Below, one piece after another: positions 1 to 56,373 of a stretch of 64,000 nucleotides of DNA. The first letter of the stretch is position 1; the number at the start of each line of letters is the position of its first letter. The notes under the pieces were generated by a model. It did no database searches. It was not told the DNA's origin and saw only the letters and a program-made list of their open reading frames with translations. The DNA lies in contig JALHRR010000001.1 of NCBI GenBank assembly GCA_022841345.1, positions 248,001-312,000 on the forward strand, in the 5' to 3' direction. Made by a program: the position numbers and the translations under genes. Source of the DNA: Saprospiraceae bacterium (GTDB taxonomy: Bacteria; Bacteroidota; Bacteroidia; Chitinophagales; Saprospiraceae).

Positions 1-3000
1 TCATCATCCTGACAGGCGGTTTGTTGGTTTCCCCCTTAGGAAGTTGGCAATCAGAAGTTCCGGGTTATAAACTGGTGGTCGATGCATTACCCGATCTCAG
101 TGAAAACAGACATGTAGTCGTTTGTAAGTTAGGTGCTGCCAATCCACGGATTCTGGAAAAGAAAGTGACCATTCCATTGAGCAAATGGTTGTTGTCTCAG
201 AAAAATATAAAGGAAGTTCAGGCACTTACCATGAATGCGAAAGTATTCCTTTATATCAGAATGGATGATAGTCCTGATTTTCAGGACTCATATGATGATC
301 TCACTGCTATACTGAATCGAATGCCTCCCCAAATATTGCCGGAAGAAGCAGTTCTTGAAGCCGGACCACCTACCAGCTCTGTTCATCAGACTTTTGGTTT
401 TATTCTTAACCAATCAGATTCGACCGGAGAATTTATGCCTATTCTGGATCCTCATGAACTGTCAACACTGCTCCAAAAGGAATTTATTCCGGAATTGTAT
501 GCAATTGAAGGAGTAGCAGAAGTAGCAATTGCTGGTGGTGCCGGAACTGAAATTCAGATAATTCCGGATCTGGAAGCTATGAAGGGATGGGGAATCTCGC
601 TGGAGTCCCTGATTGAGCAGATCAAAAAATCATTCAACAACAATTCTTCGGGAACAGCTTCATTTAATGGTATTGAGTATTTTATAGAATGGGACGAAAG
701 CGATAAAGATCCCAATTTTTTTCGGGAAATGCTGGTTCACGGGCATGAAGGAACTACGGCACTTTCCAGCATTGCCGCAGTCCAGACAGCAGCCTCTGAG
801 CGAAATAGTCTGTTAATTTTTGAAGGACATGAGACTAGTGGAGCATTTATCAGTTTGTATCCTCATGCAGATCCTTCGATAGTTTTAACACAGGTACAGA
901 AATCAATTGACAATATAATTCAGAAATGGAACCAGCAGAACATTAGTGGAAATGGAGGAATTAGTTCGCATGTCTTCTACAATCGAATGGACCTGATTCA
1001 AAAGAACATGAGTACCCTTCGGGAAGCACTTATTCTCGAATGCTTAATTGCAGTGTTTATACTGTGCTTGTTTATGAGTCGATTTAGAATAGCTGTAATA
1101 GTTGCTATAATGGTGCCCCTGACCATTTCGCTTGTATTTATCATTATGTATTTCACAGGAATTCGTCTGCATATTTTATCTGTTGCAGGTCTGATTTTAG
1201 CAATAGGTACTGTAGTTGATTTTGGAATTATTCTATCTCAAAGTGTAGAGGAGAAATTGGTCCAAAGTGAGCGTGGAAATCTCAGGGGAGCTATTCAGGA
1301 ATCTATGCGTTCTGTATTACCCTTATTTATCACATCGGCTTCGATTGTGATATTGGCATTCATTCCGGTTTTTTTATTGGAAGGGACTGAAGGACGCATG
1401 TTTTCACCTTTGGCCTGGACTAAGACACTGATGATGATTTCAGCATTATTGCTGACGTTATTGATACTGCCGGGCTTATTGAGAAGCACATTAAATATCT
1501 CTATCTCTGTTAACATAGGTTACGGGATAGGATTGACAGCTGCTTTGACCCTTGTTTATTTGAATTTTTTGGCAGGAATTGCTGCAATTTTCATTTTTCT
1601 GGCTTATTTTCTTTCACGCGAAAAGCCAAAACAAAGAGTGATAGTAATGCGGGTGTCTGCCGTTATTTTTCTCATTTTTTACAGTCATTTTTGGGCTCCA
1701 TTAGGGCAGGCGCAATTGCCTGTTTTGAACATTTTATTTGGTACCGGCCTGATTGCAGCCTTATTAGTAATAATGCATTTCAATCAAATCTACTACAAAG
1801 TCATCCTGGGTTTTCTGATGAAGAAGGCAGCCTGGTATGGCATATTCATTGTTTGTTTTTTGATGGCAGGGATTTGGTCATTTTTCCGGATTCCAGCTTC
1901 TCATTTGCCTGTATTAAATGAAGGTGTTTATTTACATATGCCTTCTTTGCCGCATGGCGCTGATATCCATGAAGCACTGGATTATGGATTATTACTGGAT
2001 TCCCTGTACAGATCAGTGCCGGAGGTTTCATCTGTGGTTATCAAGGCTGGTCAGGCAGCATCTTCGATGGATCCGGCTCCCATATCCATGTTTGAAAATT
2101 TTATTTCAGTACATCAACTTATAGCAAGAGATAAGCAAGGAAAGCTCATACCGGCCACAAAAAGTGGGAATACATATTCTGCGCTTGATTCAGCTACCTT
2201 AGCAGATCAGGTATTTCGGAGATCGCTCCCGGCCTGGCGACCTGAAATTGTTGATGCTGAAAATTTGTGGAATCTGATAGCAGAAAAATCGCATATCGGT
2301 GGTCTTTCTCATGCCCCCGGATTGCAACCTGTGCAAGCCAGAATGATTATGCAGGAAACTAGTATCCAATCACCGTATTTTGTGAAGATAACGGGCAGGG
2401 ATCAGTCACACCTGGATACAATATCTGAAGCTGTCATTCAATTGCTTCAATCTATGAATGAAATAGATCCATATTCTATCTACTATGATAAACCTACCTC
2501 AGCTGAATATATAAAAGTAGTACCTGACACAGAAAAATTGAAGCAAGCGGGTATATCTCAGACGCATTTATCACATCATTTATCTCATGCTTTTCAGGTA
2601 CATTCACATGCAGGGCAATCCATCGGAAACGATGAAACTCCAGTAAGAGTTTTCTTGGGTGACGCTTATTCAAAAGATCCGCAAGCCATTTTGAGTATTC
2701 CGGTCATGAATCCCAATGGTCAAATGTATCTACTAGGTGATCTGATTGATATTGAATTTGAGAGAGGGGCCGGGATGCTTCGCCATGAACAGGGAGAATT
2801 ATTTTCTGCTGTCACTTTTCTGGTCAAACCAGAATGGGATGCGCAGGAAATTCTGAAAAAACTAAGCACCTCCTTAAAAGCATTGCCATTAATGTCAGGC
2901 GCTGGAGCAATGGTGGATGGTGAATATGAGGCTATCAGAAAATCTTCCAAAAGGAATATATTTTTGTTGACTTTGACATTGTGTATCATTGCTTTGATTT

Positions 3001-21242: not shown

Positions 21243-22283
21243 ATGCATAAAGATAAGCCTTTTAAACTGAGCAGTTTTTTTAAATACCCGATTTCTTATA
21301 TTCTATGTCTCAGCCTGGTGTATTCCTGCTCTGGCGACAAGCCGGTTCCGAATACAGATCATATCAATGCTGATATTCAATTGATGAGATTTGAACAGGA
21401 TTACCGCAATGTAAATCTGGAAAATTGGGATGAAAGTTGGGCAAATCTTCAAAAAAAATATCCTGGATTCCTCTCTGTTTATTTTAGCAGGATCATGGCT
21501 GATATTCCTGTCCCGGAGGATTCCATTAAATCATATGCATATGAAATTGCTGAGCAAGGCTTTTTAAATCCCCTTCATGATAGCGTCAAGCTTACATTCC
21601 CGGATTTAAAACCTTATATGGAGGAATTAGAACCTGCTATTAAGCTTTACAGACATTATACAGGGGATAATCAGCCAAAGGTTTTGGTGAGTTTTATTTC
21701 TGAATTTGGAGTGGGTGCAGCTACCATTGGCAACGATACACTGGGTATCGGGCTGGATATGTTTATGGGTTCTGAATTCAGCGCTTATGATCCCAATTTA
21801 TTTCCGGCATTTATCAGCAGGCATATGAGGCCTGACAAAATTGTTCCCAATCTTATAAAGGCAATGGGTTATGACCTGGTAGGAGAACCCTCCGGGATCA
21901 GGATGCTGGATGTCATGATTCAGCAAGGAAAAGTGTTGTACCTGATGGATTTGGTTTTGCCGGAAACACATGATTCCATCAAAATCGACTATACATCTGA
22001 CCAATGGAACTGGGTTGAAGATAATGAAGCACAAATTTGGTCTCATTTTCTCAGTAAGGAATTGCTTTACAATACCAATCGGCAGGATATTCAGAAATTA
22101 ATAGGACCCAGTCCCAATGCACCCAACATGCCTGCAGAAGCTCCCGGACATACAGCAACCTGGATCGGCTGGCAAATCATCCGCCGCTATATGGAAAAGT
22201 ATCCTGAAATCACTATTCCTGAGCTCATGGCAGACCAGGATGCACAAGCCATTCTGGAGAAATCGAAGTATCGACCACGTTAG
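21243..22283 (+). CDS. gldB: Gliding-motility lipoprotein GldB homologue
   Basis: This is a predicted lipoprotein of 346 aa. The start at 21243 is chosen because it yields a signal (MHKDKPFKLSSFFKYPISYI... LVYSC, lipidated Cys near 28). A longer frame open from 21138 overlaps the divergent barrel gene and would hide it. The body matches GldB: DIQLMRFEQDY, DETHDSIKIDYTSDQ-type region, NEAQIWSHFLSKELLYNT and ATWIGWQIIRRYMEKY. GldB is one of the lipoproteins needed for gliding in Flavobacterium, and its exact role is not known. Together with type IX substrates in this window it supports a gliding or T9SS-competent cell. Confidence 0.88.
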   Translation: MHKDKPFKLSSFFKYPISYILCLSLVYSCSGDKPVPNTDHINADIQLMRFEQDYRNVNLENWDESWANLQKKYPGFLSVYFSRIMADIPVPEDSIKSYAYEIAEQGFLNPLHDSVKLTFPDLKPYMEELEPAIKLYRHYTGDNQPKVLVSFISEFGVGAATIGNDTLGIGLDMFMGSEFSAYDPNLFPAFISRHMRPDKIVPNLIKAMGYDLVGEPSGIRMLDVMIQQGKVLYLMDLVLPETHDSIKIDYTSDQWNWVEDNEAQIWSHFLSKELLYNTNRQDIQKLIGPSPNAPNMPAEAPGHTATWIGWQIIRRYMEKYPEITIPELMADQDAQAILEKSKYRPR

Positions 22284-22625
22284 CTGTTGGCTTTTAGCGA
22301 ACAGCCGGGAAGAAAGCTTTTGGCCATTAGCTTTTGGCTATTAGCGAACAGCCGGGAAGAAGTAGTAAGGCATAAGTAGTAAGGCATAAGTGAATAGCCG
22401 AGGAGAATGCCCCAAGCCTCAAGCTCATGAAAACAGCCTGGGTTTGTTGCATCTTTATCTTATGCACAGCTGTCACCTCCGAAAATATTAGCTGCAAAGC
22501 AGATAATATTTCGGGGATGTCACCTTTTGCCGCAGGCAAAGGATGTCACCATGCGAGCGCAGCGAGCAGGATGTCACCCGGTCAACAACAAAAGCAATGG
22601 GTGAGCTGCTATGAACAGCAGCTTC
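22284..22625. other. Gene-free gap with AACAGCC modules and hairpin array
   Basis: The left part (22284-22410) is the inverted GGCTGTT family: AACAGCCGGGAAGAA occurs twice (about 22301 and 22347). It is followed by short tandem repeats of GCTTTTGGCCATTA type and of AAGTAGTAAGGCAT type. The right part (22471-22578) is a linker-hairpin array, listed separately. The array ends close to the stop codon of the convergent bifunctional nuclease gene. Confidence 0.6.
22471..22578 (-). repeat. Linker-hairpin array 1
   Basis: TGTCACC occurs four times (22471, 22518, 22544, 22572; GGTGACA on the minus strand). Between the linkers lie different inverted repeats: TCCGAAAATATTA...GATAATATTTCGG, TTTTGC-CGCAG-GCAAAG, and ATGCGAGCGCAGCGAGCA. 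Each loop or tip carries a GC-rich near-palindrome (GCTGCAAAGC, GCCGCAGGC, GAGCGCAGCGAG). Confidence 0.75.
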
Positions 22626-30968: not shown

Positions 30969-31506
30969 GAGCGGTGATATTGACTTCTCCCTGGCTGTAC
31001 TCTCCGATTGTAGCAACGCACAACAGGCTTTAGTCGTAGCACGGGTGACGCCCCTTCCAGGCTACGCCTGTGAAGGGGTGACGCCTTTTACCTACGGCAA
31101 AAGGTGACATTCCTGGCATCTGCGATGCCAGAAGTGACGTCCCTGCTTAAGCGACATTTTTAGACTCAGATTCAGGATGAGACTATCATTTTGCCTCAGG
31201 CAAAATGAAGAGGCAAAAATGTCGGTTTTCACTGCCCCTTTTGCAAGCCGCCCCTTTTCCTGCGTCAAGTAATTTTACCATTGGCAAAATGAGCTCCGCA
31301 ACGTCACCCCGACTGAGCGCAGCGATGGCGGGGCGTCACCTTTTTGCTGCGTAGCAGTGAAAAGATGTCACCCCGGCCAGGCGCAGCCGTGCCGGGCGTC
31401 ACCCGTATCAGGCACCACCTCCCCAGCAACTTCGCCAGCCGTGCCGGGGTAACAAAGTCTTACGACCACAACCTGTATGAGGCTTCACTGACTTGAATTT
31501 CAACAC
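30969..31506. other. Gene-free gap holding a two-armed hairpin array
   Basis: The gap separates the convergent ROK kinase and gamma carbonic anhydrase genes. Most of it is the linker-hairpin array at 31044-31403. Between its two halves (31141-31300) lie further hairpins, including TTTTGCCTCAGGCAAAA (about 31192-31208) and a long GCGACATTTTT...AAAAATGTCG pair (about 31151-31224). No coding frame is convincing. Confidence 0.65.
31044..31403. repeat. Linker-hairpin array 2, two opposed halves
   Basis: In the left half GGTGACG-type linkers occur at 31044, 31077, 31103 and 31133. They separate the hairpins CCCCTTC...GAAGGGG, TTTTACCTACGGCAAAA and CTGGCATCTGCGATGCCAG. In the right half the complement CGTCACC/TGTCACC occurs at 31302, 31334, 31366 and 31397, separating hairpins tipped by GAGCGCAGCGA, GCTGCGTAGC and GGCGCAGCC. 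The orientation switches around the 160-base centre. Confidence 0.75.
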
Positions 31507-51004: not shown

Positions 51005-51694
51005 AATACATAGTTTTTCATGAGAACAATGGGGTTCGGGTAAAGTTGATTTAACAGGGTACTTTCAGGATTAATGGGGGCTACTAAAGGAGATTTGTCG
51101 TAGAGAGGTGATGTTTTTCTGCGCCTGCGGCTGGAAAAGTGATGTTTCTTCCCGGCTATGCCAGGAAGAAGTGATGTCTCCGCTATAAATTGACTGCTTT
51201 GCAGCCTATTTATAGCGGAGGTGATGTGCAAGCGGAGCTTGTGGTTGAGTGGTGAGTATTGGGTGCGGGTTAGTTTGAGAGGAGAGTGTGAAGAATCTCA
51301 CCAATAACTAACAAGGACAAGAAGTTCTCATTTCCCCTCCAGGAGAAAGTCCGGGTTAGGGTTCACTCACGAAACTCTGACACACACGGGCTGTTCATGT
51401 CGCAACTTATATTCAAGTTTGCAACTTCACACGGGCTAAACTCACCCCCGACCCCTCTCTTTTGAAGAGGGGAGTGTAGCAACTCGCATTCAGGTTGTTT
51501 CCGGCTGTTCTCCTTTCCCTTCCAAGGGAAAGGCCGGGATAGGGTTCACACCCGCACTCATAACCCATACCCGGCTGTTTGCTAGAAGCCAGCAGCTAGA
51601 AGCGGCTGTTTTCTTATAGCTTCCCCAAGGTATTGGGGACACGGTGCAGCTTCTTTGGCTGTTTACTTACGCCTTATTACTTACGCCTTACTAC
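51005..51694. other. Gene-free gap packed with three repeat families
   Basis: From left to right: a linker-hairpin array with its terminal module (51107-51258); a G/T-rich tract (51259-51300); inverted pieces CCTTTCCCTTCCAAGGGAAA (about 51511) and CCCCTCTCTTTTGAAGAGGG (about 51453); a recurring CCGGGTTAGGGTTCAC phrase (about 51350 and 51528); and GGCTGTT-anchored modules (about 51386, 51502, 51572, 51604 and 51658) ending in CTTACGCC short tandem repeats next to the thrS stop. No gene is seen. Confidence 0.65.
51107..51258 (+). repeat. Linker-hairpin array 3 with terminal module
   Basis: GTGATGT linkers at 51108, 51139, 51171 and 51221 separate three unlike hairpins: TTTTCTGCGCCTGCGGCTGGAAAA type, TTCTTCCCGGCTATGCCAGGAAGAA type and a long TCCGCTATAAATTGACTG... 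TATTTATAGCGGA stem. The last linker leads into GCAAGCGGAGCTTGTG then GTTGAGTGGTGAGTA. That terminal module is repeated almost exactly at 55276-55314. Confidence 0.78.
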
Positions 51695-54151: not shown

Positions 54152-55084
54152 ATGGAGGATTTTAAAAACAGATTGCTCAAACTCGAAAAGCATATTGGCA
54201 AATGGGCTCGCAGGCAGGGCATTACTTGTTACAGAATATATGATAAGGATATTCCGGAGTATCCTTTGAGCGTAGACAGGTATCAGGATTATCTCTATAT
54301 ATCCCTCTATGAGAAAAATTACAATGAAGAAATCATCACAGATGAATGGGTAGAAGAAATTCTTCAAGCCACAGCTTCAGCGCTTCAAACTGCACCTGAA
54401 AAAATTGTATTGAGGGCCAGAAAGCAACAGAAAGGTCTCGAACAATATGAAAAAGTAGATTCTGCCGGTAATCGAATGGTGGTGATGGAAGATGGACTAC
54501 AATTTATTGTCAATCTAACAGACTACCTCGATACCGGGCTCTTTCTGGACCACCGGAATACCCGCAAAATGGTAAGGGGAATGTCGGAGAATGCCCGATT
54601 CCTGAATTTATTCGCTTACACAGGATCTTTCACAGTCTATGCTGCCGCAGGAGGAGCAACCAACACGACTACAGTTGATTTGTCAAACACATATTTAGAG
54701 TGGGCAAAGGAAAATATGACATTGAATGGATTTATTAGATCAGAAACAAAGGCACATCACTTTGTACGGACAGATGTGGTAGCTTATCTCCAAAGATTGA
54801 AAGCCGGTTCATTTGATCTGATAGTTATGGATCCGCCGACATTTTCTAATAGTAAAAGGATGAGCGGTGTTCTGGACATTCAGAGGGATCATGTGAGTCT
54901 GATCAATTCAGCCCTTAGAGTTCTGAGTCCAGGAGGCAATCTCATCTTCTCCACTAATTACCGCGGATTCAAACTAAATGAAGCTGAAATTAAGTCTGAC
55001 AATATTAAAAATATTTCAGCCCAGTCTGTTCCCAATGACTTCAGGAATAAAAAGATTCATCAGTGTTTTGTGATAGAAGGATAG
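54152..55084 (+). CDS. Class I SAM-dependent rRNA methyltransferase, RlmK-like
   Basis: This 310-aa protein resembles the C-terminal (RlmK) half of RlmKL and the RlmI family. LDTGLFLDHRNTRKMVRGMS and FLNLFAYTGSFTVYAAAGGA form the SAM-binding region, VDLSNTYLEWAKENMTLNGF is next, and the catalytic loop is VMDPPTFSNSKRM. By family RlmK methylates N7 of 23S G2069. A free-standing RlmK-like protein is common outside Proteobacteria. Target specificity is inferred. The start ATG lies only four bases after a candidate -7 promoter box. Confidence 0.88.
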   Translation: MEDFKNRLLKLEKHIGKWARRQGITCYRIYDKDIPEYPLSVDRYQDYLYISLYEKNYNEEIITDEWVEEILQATASALQTAPEKIVLRARKQQKGLEQYEKVDSAGNRMVVMEDGLQFIVNLTDYLDTGLFLDHRNTRKMVRGMSENARFLNLFAYTGSFTVYAAAGGATNTTTVDLSNTYLEWAKENMTLNGFIRSETKAHHFVRTDVVAYLQRLKAGSFDLIVMDPPTFSNSKRMSGVLDIQRDHVSLINSALRVLSPGGNLIFSTNYRGFKLNEAEIKSDNIKNISAQSVPNDFRNKKIHQCFVIEG

Positions 55085-55587
55085 ATCGTAATTTACGGGG
55101 CTGACCCCTGGGAGGTGATGTCCCGGCCGTACTACATGGTCGTAATGCCGGGGCTTGCTGCGTGCAAGGTGATGTCCCGGCTTCGCTTCGCTGCGCCGGG
55201 GTGATGTCTTCCTTCGGCTACGCCTCGGAAGGTGATGTCTTTTTGTTTTCTTCAGCTTCGCTTCGAAAACAAAAAGGTGATGTGCAAGCGGAGCTTGCGA
55301 TTGAGTGGTGAGTAAAGGGGGTGAGTTTGTTTGATGTGTGAGTCTGTTTGTGTGCTGAGCTCCGTTAGGGGGGGATACATAACTCCTAGCCCACCCAAAC
55401 CCAAACCCAAACTATGCACTCAATCGTGAGCTCCGCTCACACATCACCTTTGTTCTATTGAGGCGTAGCCGAAAATAGAACAAAGACATCACTTCTTCTT
55501 GGCGTAGCCAGGAAGAAACATCACCTTGCAAGCCGCAGGCGCAGCAAGACATCACCTCCCAACTCCAATCCTCCAAATGAAGAAAAA
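55085..55587. other. Gene-free gap occupied by a two-armed hairpin array
   Basis: Almost the whole gap is the linker-hairpin array at 55114-55556. Its centre (55315-55417) is a G/T-rich tract (GTGAGTTTGTTTGATGTGTG) changing to a C/A-rich tract (CCACCCAAACCCAAACCCAA), with GAGCTCCGTTAGG between. The array runs to 31 bases short of the SDR stop. No gene is present. Confidence 0.7.
55114..55556. repeat. Linker-hairpin array 5, two opposed halves
   Basis: In the left half GGTGATGT occurs at 55114, 55168, 55200, 55231 and 55276. It separates the hairpins CCCGGC...GCCGGG (twice, different tips), CTTCC...GGAAG and CTTTTTGTTTTC...GAAAACAAAAAG. In the right half ACATCAC(C) occurs at 55441, 55486, 55518 and 55549, separating TTTGTTCTATT...AATAGAACAAA, TTCTTCTTGGCGTAGCCAGG-type and CTTGC...GCAAG hairpins. 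Both halves meet the centre through the same terminal module (55276-55314 and, inverted, 55418-55448). Confidence 0.82.
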
Positions 55588-56373
55588 CTACAAACTCCGC
55601 GTCCTTCCTCCATCCACCGGCAGATTAACTCCAGTGATATAAGCTGCAGCAGGACTGGCAAGAAATGCTGCTCCGGCCGCGATTTCGGAGGGAAGGGCGA
55701 ATCTTTTCATCGGAACTGAACCCTTCATTTGAGCTGCAATATCAGATTCCGGAACTCCGGCTTTAGAGGCTTTATCGCTTATCAACTGTTGCAGTCGATC
55801 CGTGTCAGTGAAGCCCGGCAAAATATTATTAACCGTTATTCCCCATGGAGCCAGTTCAGTTGCCATGGTTTTAGACCAATTTCCCATTGCAGCACGGATG
55901 GTATTCGAGACACCAAGACCTTCGATAGGCTCCTTGACAGAAGTGGAAATCACATTGATGATTCTTCCGTAAGATTCCTGCCTCATTCCATCAATCAACA
56001 ATTTTGTCAAAATCTGACTGCAAATGATATGTTTATTGAATGCATCTGCAAATTCTTCGGGTTGTGCATCGATGATGGGACCACCTTTTGGCCCCCCGGT
56101 ATTATTGATCAGTATATGATATTTTCTGACTACCAATAATCCGCTTACTTTTCTGCGGAGATCCTGCAAGTCTTCGAAATCAGCCATCAGGAAATCATGA
56201 TCCTGTCCCTTTGATTTGTCCAGATCCTGTAAAGCTGCAGAAAGCGTATTTGCAGAACGAGCCACCAATGTTACATTTGCGCCCATCCCAGCCAATGCAA
56301 TACCGATTGCTTTTCCTATTCCTTTACTTCCTCCACAAACTAATGCATGCTTTCCCAAAAGACTAAAGTTCAT
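55588..56373 (-). CDS. SDR-family oxidoreductase with replaced catalytic Tyr and Lys
   Basis: This 261-aa Rossmann protein is of the short-chain dehydrogenase family, nearest to 3-oxoacyl-ACP reductase-like proteins. The cofactor motif CGGSKGIGKAIG (residues 13-24) and NNTGG (90-94) are normal. At the active site the Ser is present (S143 or S145), but the YxxxK motif reads S156-N-T-I-R160. Such non-canonical FabG-like SDRs form a known group whose activity is unclear. The NNILPGFTDTDRL and GVNLPVDGGRTRSL regions are standard. It is divergent from the dioxygenase gene, 91 bases away. Confidence 0.9.
   Translation of the reverse strand: MNFSLLGKHALVCGGSKGIGKAIGIALAGMGANVTLVARSANTLSAALQDLDKSKGQDHDFLMADFEDLQDLRRKVSGLLVVRKYHILINNTGGPKGGPIIDAQPEEFADAFNKHIICSQILTKLLIDGMRQESYGRIINVISTSVKEPIEGLGVSNTIRAAMGNWSKTMATELAPWGITVNNILPGFTDTDRLQQLISDKASKAGVPESDIAAQMKGSVPMKRFALPSEIAAGAAFLASPAAAYITGVNLPVDGGRTRSL

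What the first reader, a model, noticed from the sequence alone, without database searches (positions are those of the whole stretch)
55114..55556. Two-armed array of unlike hairpins joined by an identical linker
Nine copies of GGTGATGT/ACATCACC are spaced 26-165 bases apart, and the short spacers are all self-complementary with different stem sequences. Only the hairpin tips are alike (GCTTCGCTTCGCTGC, GGCTACGCC, GAGGCGTAGCC, GCGCAGC). The array switches orientation at its centre, and both halves reach the centre through the same terminal module. Constant linkers with variable perfect stems mean each stem must be kept paired by compensatory change or created by copying one arm into the other. 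That differs from simple REP elements and from CRISPR. It could be a folded RNA, a protein-binding scaffold, or the footprint of an unknown hairpin-making process.
Basis: partly seen in the sequence, partly recalled or inferred. Interest (0 to 1): 0.85.

Follow-up and report, generated by a model that had tools for sequence, protein, structure and literature searches.

The report
Dispersed hairpin arrays with constant linkers
The stretch is one copy of a scattered, mobile-looking family of DNA hairpin arrays in one Bacteroidota genome; it works like the known REP/BIME palindromes but has an unusual ordered, modular build that could make the spread of such repeats easier to study.

Summary
It is one of many copies: the own genome has 482 tag-spacer-tag matches against 44 for the reversed pattern; a stricter form gives 50 there and one each in 2 of 397 other genomes of its family. 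Stems change on both sides yet stay paired. Tips are mostly TNC triloops, GNA on the other strand, a known very stable DNA mini-hairpin. All 9 intact two-armed elements join an A arm to a B arm. One hairpin kind occurs with either linker type, never mixed. RAYT-type transposase genes of the same genome are flanked by other palindrome families; in a related genome a RAYT-like gene lies beside GTGAYRY-linked short repeats. Best reading: a lineage-specific REP/BIME-like repeat spread as single-stranded DNA hairpins by a Y1 (RAYT-like) enzyme. No RAYT carrying this tag was found here, and mobility was not shown. New variant of a known kind.

The parts
55115..55168 (+). Outermost B-side unit: linker GTGATGT plus a 47-nt imperfect palindrome
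   Evidence: Read; a similar extra outer unit stands in one other copy on contig C97
55169..55200 (+). Linker GTGATGT and hairpin B1 (CCCGGC...GCCGGG)
55201..55231 (+). Linker and hairpin B2 (CTTCC...GGAAG, tip GGCTACGCC)
55232..55276 (+). Linker and hairpin B3 (CTTTTTGTTTTC...GAAAACAAAAAG, tip AGCTTCGCT)
   Evidence: (I8)
55277..55298 (+). Last linker of arm B and terminal hairpin GCAAGC-GGA-GCTTGC (GNA loop on this strand)
55299..55425 (.). Centre, G/T-rich then A/C-rich, opening GATTGAGT and closing ACTCAATC
55426..55447 (-). Terminal hairpin GTGAGC-GGA-GCTCAC and last linker of arm A
55448..55492 (-). Hairpin A3 (CTTTGTTCTATT...AATAGAACAAAG) and linker
   Evidence: (I9)
55493..55524 (-). 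Hairpin A2 (TTCTTC...GAAGAA; closing T-A, hence AGTGATGT) and linker
55525..55555 (-). Hairpin A1 (CTTGCTGCGCCTGCGGCTTGCAAG) and outermost linker of arm A
51108..51227 (+). A second copy in the window: single A-type arm (three hairpins) followed by a terminal module, no facing arm seen
31045..31402 (.). Two-armed array of the sister type with GTGAC-linkers (GTGACGC, GTGACAT, GTGACGT)
22470..22577 (-). Single-arm array of the GTGAC-linker type
54152..55084 (+). Upstream gene, SAM-dependent methyltransferase-like ORF (name by reading); its stop lies about 30 nt before the element
55588..56373 (-). Facing gene, short-chain dehydrogenase-like ORF (name by reading); its stop lies about 32 nt past the element

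Best explanation
A non-autonomous, dispersed palindromic repeat family that works like REP/BIME elements. Each unit is a DNA hairpin with a constant single-stranded foot (GTGATGT, or GTGACRY in the sister type). When the DNA is single-stranded, at replication or repair, the hairpins fold and a Y1/HUH enzyme of the RAYT (TnpAREP) kind recognises foot plus hairpin, cuts and joins. Arrays then move and recombine as units, one arm alone or an A arm facing a B arm. Shown: dispersal, recurring module order, compensatory change, tip type, A-B pairing of arms, one hairpin kind shared by two linker types, and RAYT-flanking palindrome families in the same genome. Inferred: that single-stranded DNA is the active form, that a Y1 enzyme moves them (acting in trans, or lost since), and that the linker is the recognition foot.
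For: Dispersal: 482 against 44 control matches in the own genome; 94 chained arrays in 936 kb, 40 with three hairpins, 28 with two and 26 with one. Pairs of copies resemble each other over the array and a short, variable stretch beyond it, e.g. 91.6% over 178 bp at C25 (a contig end) and C80. Pairing with two-sided change: 95-96% Watson-Crick cells in three families, 85.5% in a fourth; 0 of 500 shuffles reach the paired share or the number of two-sided cells in any. Little wobble: G-T 9 and A-C 23 of 1109 cells. Tips: TNC triloop in 62 of 78 inserts of three families (60 closed by C-G), GNA 1 of 78; terminal hairpin GNA in 16 of 18. GNA loops make very stable DNA mini-hairpins (PMC4686876, passages). 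Hairpin kind CTCCG..CGGAG: 3 between GTGAC linkers, 7 between GTGAT linkers, 0 mixed. In the own genome 3 of 3 genes over the RAYT cut-off, and one RAYT-like gene below it (57.9 bits), have the same kind of palindrome on both sides. A RAYT-like gene in another genome of the family has eight GTGAYRY-linked repeats on one side and two similar repeats on the other. Quentin et al. report that Bacteroidetes TnpAREP subclass 2.6 genes are flanked by atypical structures without GT[AG]G, copied elsewhere in the genome (PMC6006769, passages). Context: convergent gaps 10 of 31 with arrays against 44 of 317 without, p = 0.016.
Against: None of the Y1-type genes found in the own genome has a GTGATG-linked hairpin chain in the roughly 1-1.5 kb held on each side. 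Two of the seven looked at (C73, C13) lack matching palindromes on both sides, and the palindromes of the C8 gene occur only 0 and 1 times in 787 kb. Of 30 loci with relatives of the L086 gene, 29 show no chained GTGAYRY tags, so that link rests on one locus. There the inserts are short and weakly paired (CTTTAAGCAAG), the two right-hand repeats read GTGATAA and GTGACGG, and the gene scores 44 bits against a cut-off of 80. No GTAG foot. No insertion/empty-site pair was seen: the same-genus genome held is only 57% identical in the neighbouring protein. Leaders are poorly conserved, so the ends of the mobile unit are not fixed. The number of pairs with a two-sided change is unremarkable in family H2_26 (206 of 500 shuffles reach it).
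Confidence: 0.63

Rival explanations
1. A structured RNA or 3'-end RNA element (bidirectional terminator, mRNA stabiliser): the hairpins are kept paired because the transcript needs them.
For: Strong RNA fold, two-sided changes, excess in convergent gaps.
Against: Few G-U pairs on the linker strand (9 of 1109 cells; 23 if the other strand is read), fewer than I would expect of RNA (general knowledge). In tandem gene pairs the arrays point with the genes 10 times and against them 8 times. No Rfam match in the window. The strict pattern is absent from 395 of 397 other genomes of the family. Tips fit a DNA-specific stable loop.
Confidence: 0.14
2. The two-sided changes come from a DNA process, not selection: template switching during replication repairs imperfect palindromes to perfect ones, so stems drift while staying paired.
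For: Double changes are common and intermediates few; template switching at imperfect palindromes is known in bacteria (recalled, no paper read).
Against: Does not explain dispersal, recurring module order, constant linkers or constant tips; it could act on top of the mobile-element reading.
Confidence: 0.1
3. A MITE-like composite moved by an ordinary DDE or other transposase through its ends, with the hairpins as passengers.
For: Leader- and trailer-like sequence accompanies many copies; a leader-repeat-tail MITE is known in Porphyromonas gingivalis (PMC4596501, abstract).
Against: Leaders are poorly conserved and I noticed no long terminal inverted repeats. Neither target duplications nor a DDE transposase sharing the ends was searched for.
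Confidence: 0.08
4. Host protein-binding scaffold (gyrase, IHF or nucleoid protein) kept for chromosome structure, as proposed for some BIMEs.
For: High copy, mainly intergenic, constant linker.
Against: The strict pattern is missing from nearly all relatives searched; no known binding motif was tested.
Confidence: 0.05

Closest known systems
Flanking structures of Bacteroidetes TnpAREP subclass 2.6 (RAYT group 5), PMC6006769 (abstract and passages seen)
   Same: Same phylum; structures without GT[AG]G beside a RAYT and copied elsewhere in the genome. Two own RAYTs (L032, L034) carry NHIH, WQ and YIH.NP, close to the 2.6 motifs (read by eye)
   Different: No RAYT found beside the GTGATGT arrays in this genome; the passages seen describe no constant linker, ordered unlike hairpins or A-B arms
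BIMEs / REPINs (passages of PMC8266576, PMC6006769 and PMC3733652 seen)
   Same: Several palindromes in facing orientation, mainly intergenic, high copy; heterodimers common
   Different: Foot is GTGATGT/GTGACRY and not GTAG/GTGG; each arm holds up to three or four unlike hairpins in recurring order
CGTC-tagged REPs (PMC3733652, abstract and passages seen)
   Same: The foot reads ..CGTC or ..TGTC before the stem in many units; known in Bacteroidetes; no dedicated transposase known; facing dimers
   Different: Those stems start with A-T pairs, measure 8-9 bp and have an unpaired tag; here stems mostly start C-G then T-A, often run longer, and the last C of the tag is paired
BrickBuilt MITE of Porphyromonas gingivalis (PMC4596501, abstract seen)
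   Same: Species-specific intergenic element of leader, repeats and tail
   Different: Its repeats are tandem 23-mers without spacers, not unlike hairpins with a constant linker

Membership tests
REP/BIME (broad sense) | Short palindromes, high copy, mainly intergenic | tested here: met
   (4 chained arrays fell inside ORFs, at least two of them likely chance chains in coding sequence)
REP/BIME (broad sense) | Units facing each other as dimers | tested here: met
   9 intact two-armed elements, A facing B; arms without a facing partner are also common
GTAG REP | GTAG/GTGG foot at the base of the hairpin | tested here: not met
   Foot is GTGATGT or GTGACRY
CGTC REP | Unpaired CGTC/TGTC tag, 8-9 bp stem starting with A-T pairs | tested here: not met
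   Foot similar, but stem start and often length differ
REPtron | A RAYT gene flanked by the same repeats in the same genome | tested here: not met
   None found for the GTGATGT type in G000; one locus with a similar tag in another genome
TnpAREP-mobilised element | Cleavage and transfer of the single-stranded hairpin by the enzyme | not testable with these tools
   Needs biochemistry
CRISPR | Identical repeats with unique non-palindromic spacers | tested here: not met
   Spacers are palindromic and recur genome-wide
Rfam RNA families | Match at gathering score | tested here: not met
   0 matches in the window
MITE | Terminal inverted repeats and target-site duplication | tested here: inconclusive
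   Ends not fixed; no empty site available

The most novel reading that the evidence does not exclude
A new class of REP-like element in which the linker is both the recognition foot and the preferred insertion target. Arrays would grow by one hairpin unit inserting into another's linker, each insertion restoring the linker. Two interchangeable linker types (GTGAT, GTGAC) would mark two enzyme specificities sharing part of one pool of hairpins, with an obligate pairing of B arms with A arms.
Probability: 0.25. Interest if true: 0.62.

Novelty: new variant of a known kind. Interest (0 to 1): 0.5.

Why it matters
How REP palindromes spread is still largely inferred, and the atypical structures beside Bacteroidetes RAYTs were found by manual inspection in the one survey seen (PMC6006769, passages). 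This family offers high copy, a clean constant foot, varying stems with strong covariation, two foot types sharing a hairpin, and several RAYTs with their own palindromes in one genome. That makes the question of which enzyme reads which foot testable.

Tried and rejected
CRISPR: spacers are palindromic and recur at many loci. Known RNA families: none in the window. A RAYT carrying the GTGATGT arrays in the own genome: the genes found by PF01797, by the L086 protein and by NF047646 were checked and none qualified. Spread of the exact element: one genome-collection scan gave 16 stretches; of the 8 I read, L086 was the only one with an intergenic repeat array; the other 8 I did not inspect. Viral contigs: 6 contigs; L223, L224, L226 and L227 carry long tandem repeats that look like coding repeats, L222 and L225 look like single chance matches. 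Empty site: the nearest relative held is too distant. Replication-strand bias: GC skew of the three contigs changes sign and does not orient them. Solved structures: no hit for the L086 protein; 4ER8 (TnpAREP) at E = 0.093 for one own RAYT. Literature: PMC3333891 not held. The search for Saprospiraceae with palindromic intergenic repeats gave 0 papers, and those on Bacteroidetes REP/RAYT/MITE repeats listed none whose title or abstract start describes this element; that is the extent of the novelty check.

Limits of the numbers. Covariation used inserts with at least 4 of 6 outer pairs (181 of 203, 160 distinct; 22 dropped), which raises the paired share of the outer six pairs; inner pairs lie outside that filter and are also mostly paired. 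Shuffles ignore relatedness among copies; besides H2_26 (206), 19 and 15 of 500 shuffles reach the number of two-sided pairs in H3_38 and H2_25. The G-T/A-C bias is 9 to 23 (p = 0.02) in four families but 17 to 25 (p = 0.28) in all 160 inserts. Loop counts leave out H2_26 (30 inserts, 6-nt loops) and a B1 set of 5 inserts that gave 0 at the columns I set. The background for RAYT flanks is 300 random 500-nt windows, mostly coding by expectation, so it overstates the contrast. The 29 stretches and three (C4, C5) were chosen because they held matches; only C1-C3 (787 kb) are unselected. The 94 chains count the two arms of an element, and split chains, apart. Gene context rests on crude ORFs of 100 aa or more. 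With the looser GGTGAYRY pattern several of 59 relatives also exceed the reversed control (G015 21 to 1, G046 19 to 1, G013 16 to 0); the listed ones look like scattered coding matches, but the list was cut before G013 and G015, so related arrays there are not excluded. Nested insertions (6 cases) were sought only inside linkers, so they are no test of preference.

Full report
What is there. Between two convergent genes (stops at 55084 and 55588) the window holds two facing arms of hairpins. Reading from the outside in, arm B (left, + strand) has an extra 47-nt unit, then hairpins B1, B2 and B3. Arm A (right, - strand) has A1, A2 and A3. Each hairpin is followed, on its arm's strand, by the same 7 nt, GTGATGT. 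Each arm ends in a small hairpin (GCAAGC-GGA-GCTTGC or GTGAGC-GGA-GCTCAC) and a centre of 127 nt joins them.

It is a dispersed family. The own genome (5.87 Mb, 310 contigs) has 64 places matching GGTGATGT-15..45-GGTGATGT, 0 for the reversed control, and 482 against 44 for the looser GTGAYRY pattern. Of 59 relatives, 12 have any match to the first pattern, 1-3 each, and those I read look like chance. The stricter GGTGATGTCTT...AAGGTGATGT gives 50 in this genome and one match each in 2 of 397 other genomes of the family: one is a short-repeat array (G107, the genome of L086), the other looks like chance. With a looser GGTGAYRY pattern several relatives exceed the reversed control; related arrays with other linkers there are not excluded. 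The host is probably Saprospiraceae: L086 is titled Saprospiraceae, and G107, which holds the identical gene, is told as the same family as the window. The window holds three further arrays (51108-51227, 31045-31402, 22470-22577).

Anatomy across copies. In 936 kb I chained 94 arrays (arms counted apart): 40 with three hairpins, 28 with two, 26 with one. A-type arms commonly run H1 (CTTKCTGC...), H2 (TTTTTTC... or TTTCTTC...), H3 (38 or 43 nt), in that order; B arms run CCCGGC.., CTTCC.., CTTTTTGTTTTC..; the C-type (GTGACRY) has a largely separate set. Nine intact two-armed T elements were found, each an A arm facing a B arm. B arms were seen in 11 elements at 13 sites. By strict pattern 11 of 13 sites have an A partner; the other two have one whose first linker is mutated. 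No A-A or B-B pair was found. The hairpin CTCCG..CGGAG stands 3 times between two GTGAC linkers and 7 times between two GTGAT linkers, never mixed. So hairpin and linker can part company, while the linker type stays uniform around that hairpin.

Pairing. Of 203 inserts, 166 have at least 5 of 6 outer pairs, against 30.8 when sides are dealt anew. In four length families (43, 30, 20 and 15 distinct inserts) Watson-Crick cells are 95.3, 96.0, 96.3 and 85.5%; 0 of 500 shuffles reach this, or the number of two-sided cells, in any. Two-sided changes occur at 6 of 8, 4 of 10, 9 of 15 and 6 of 11 pairs, numbers that 0, 206, 19 and 15 of 500 shuffles reach. One pair (8-19 of H2_26) shows all four Watson-Crick pairs. 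Inserts with fewer than 4 of 6 outer pairs were dropped beforehand, which flatters the outer pairs only.

DNA or RNA. G-T pairs are 9 and A-C pairs 23 of 1109 cells in those families on the linker strand (p = 0.02), but 17 and 25 over all 160 distinct inserts (p = 0.28). A structure kept as RNA would be expected to tolerate more G-U pairs (general knowledge). Triloops are TNC in 62 of 78 inserts of three families (60 closed by C-G), N being any base, that is GNA on the other strand; terminal hairpins carry GNA on the linker strand in 16 of 18 distinct forms. H2_26 inserts have 6-nt loops instead. GNA loops closed by G-C pairs form extraordinarily stable, nuclease-resistant DNA mini-hairpins (PMC4686876, passages). 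In tandem gene pairs the arrays point with the genes 10 times and against 8 times. Together this favours single-stranded DNA as the form that matters; it does not prove it.

Surroundings. Gaps with arrays are more often convergent (10 of 31 against 44 of 317, p = 0.016) and perhaps less often divergent (3 of 31 against 80 of 317, p = 0.07). Di Nocera et al. report that REPs lie predominantly between unidirectional and convergent ORFs (PMC3733652, abstract).

The likely enzyme. Three genes of the own genome exceed the NCBIfam cut-off for REP-associated tyrosine transposase. Each has other palindromes, the same kind on both sides (TCGAAGTC-NNN-GACTTCGA; CAAGTC..GACTTG; GTAGCT..AGCTAC), as does a sub-threshold gene on contig C8 (CTTGCTAATTTATTAGCAAG). 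Of seven Y1-type genes looked at, five have matching palindromes on both sides, one of them an IS200-type gene where end hairpins are expected; two (C73, C13) do not. The C1 family is dispersed too, 6 sites in 4 places of 787 kb, the RAYT locus included; the C8 palindromes occur 0 and 1 times there. None of the Y1-type genes found has GTGATG-linked hairpin chains nearby. In L086 a 231-aa RAYT-like gene (NHFH and YIHENP motifs by reading; NF047646 44 bits, below the cut-off of 80; no Pfam hit) has eight GTGAYRY linkers with short, weakly paired CTTTAAGCAAG-type inserts on its left and two similar repeats (GTGATAA, GTGACGG) on its right. Of 30 loci with relatives of this gene, from 150 genomes searched, only that same locus shows chained tags. 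Quentin et al. report that Bacteroidetes subclass 2.6 TnpAREP genes have atypical flanking structures without GT[AG]G, copied elsewhere in the genome (PMC6006769, passages). The GTGATGT arrays fit as one more such family whose enzyme acts in trans or has been lost.

Growth of arrays. Six linkers are split at GTGAT/GT[CT] by a small palindromic insert GGTTCGA..CTCACCACAAGT. This is compatible with linkers as insertion targets, but only linkers were searched. The idea that arrays grow hairpin by hairpin into linkers is the boldest reading left open.

Verdict. Real, not chance, not CRISPR, not a lone scaffold: a lineage-specific, modular, REP/BIME-like repeat. Membership in GTAG or CGTC REPs fails on tested features; that it works like a REP is the best-supported mechanism, with enzyme and mobility still to be shown.

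Noticed in passing
window 31045-31402: A two-armed array of the sister type with GTGAC-linkers, also between convergent genes.
   Followed up: partly
window 22280-22420 and 51480-51690: Low-complexity repeated words (CGGCTGTT/AACAGCCG, AGAAGCCAG, TAAGTAGTAAGGC). CGGCTGTT-like words also follow the trailers of many hairpin arrays elsewhere in the genome.
   Followed up: no
L034, L033, L032, L214 (own genome C1:197444, C44:10039, C32:34928, C8:84112): RAYT-type genes, each flanked on both sides by a different palindrome family, some with further copies elsewhere.
   Followed up: partly
L099 886-2010 (own genome C73): A RAYT-like gene of 274 aa whose own reading frame contains copies of the repeat (AAATTTGCCAAATTTTTTAAATTTTGCAAAT) that also lies outside it, reminiscent of REPs inserted in frame inside RAYT genes (PMC6006769, subclass 2.4).
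   Followed up: no
G107/G060 contig C17 (L086 3497-3650) and C89:17457-17625: Another family member has short GTGAYRY-linked repeats (CTTTAAGCAAG, CTTAAAGTCAG), with several GTGAYRY forms mixed in one array.
   Followed up: partly
own genome C1:346435, C34:27388, C97:6447, C7:152163 and others: Further insertions inside linkers, GTGATAGCGAGGTTC..CTACAAGTGTC and GTGATACCGAGG..GGCACAAGTGTC, look like a second small palindromic element at the same place of the linker.
   Followed up: partly
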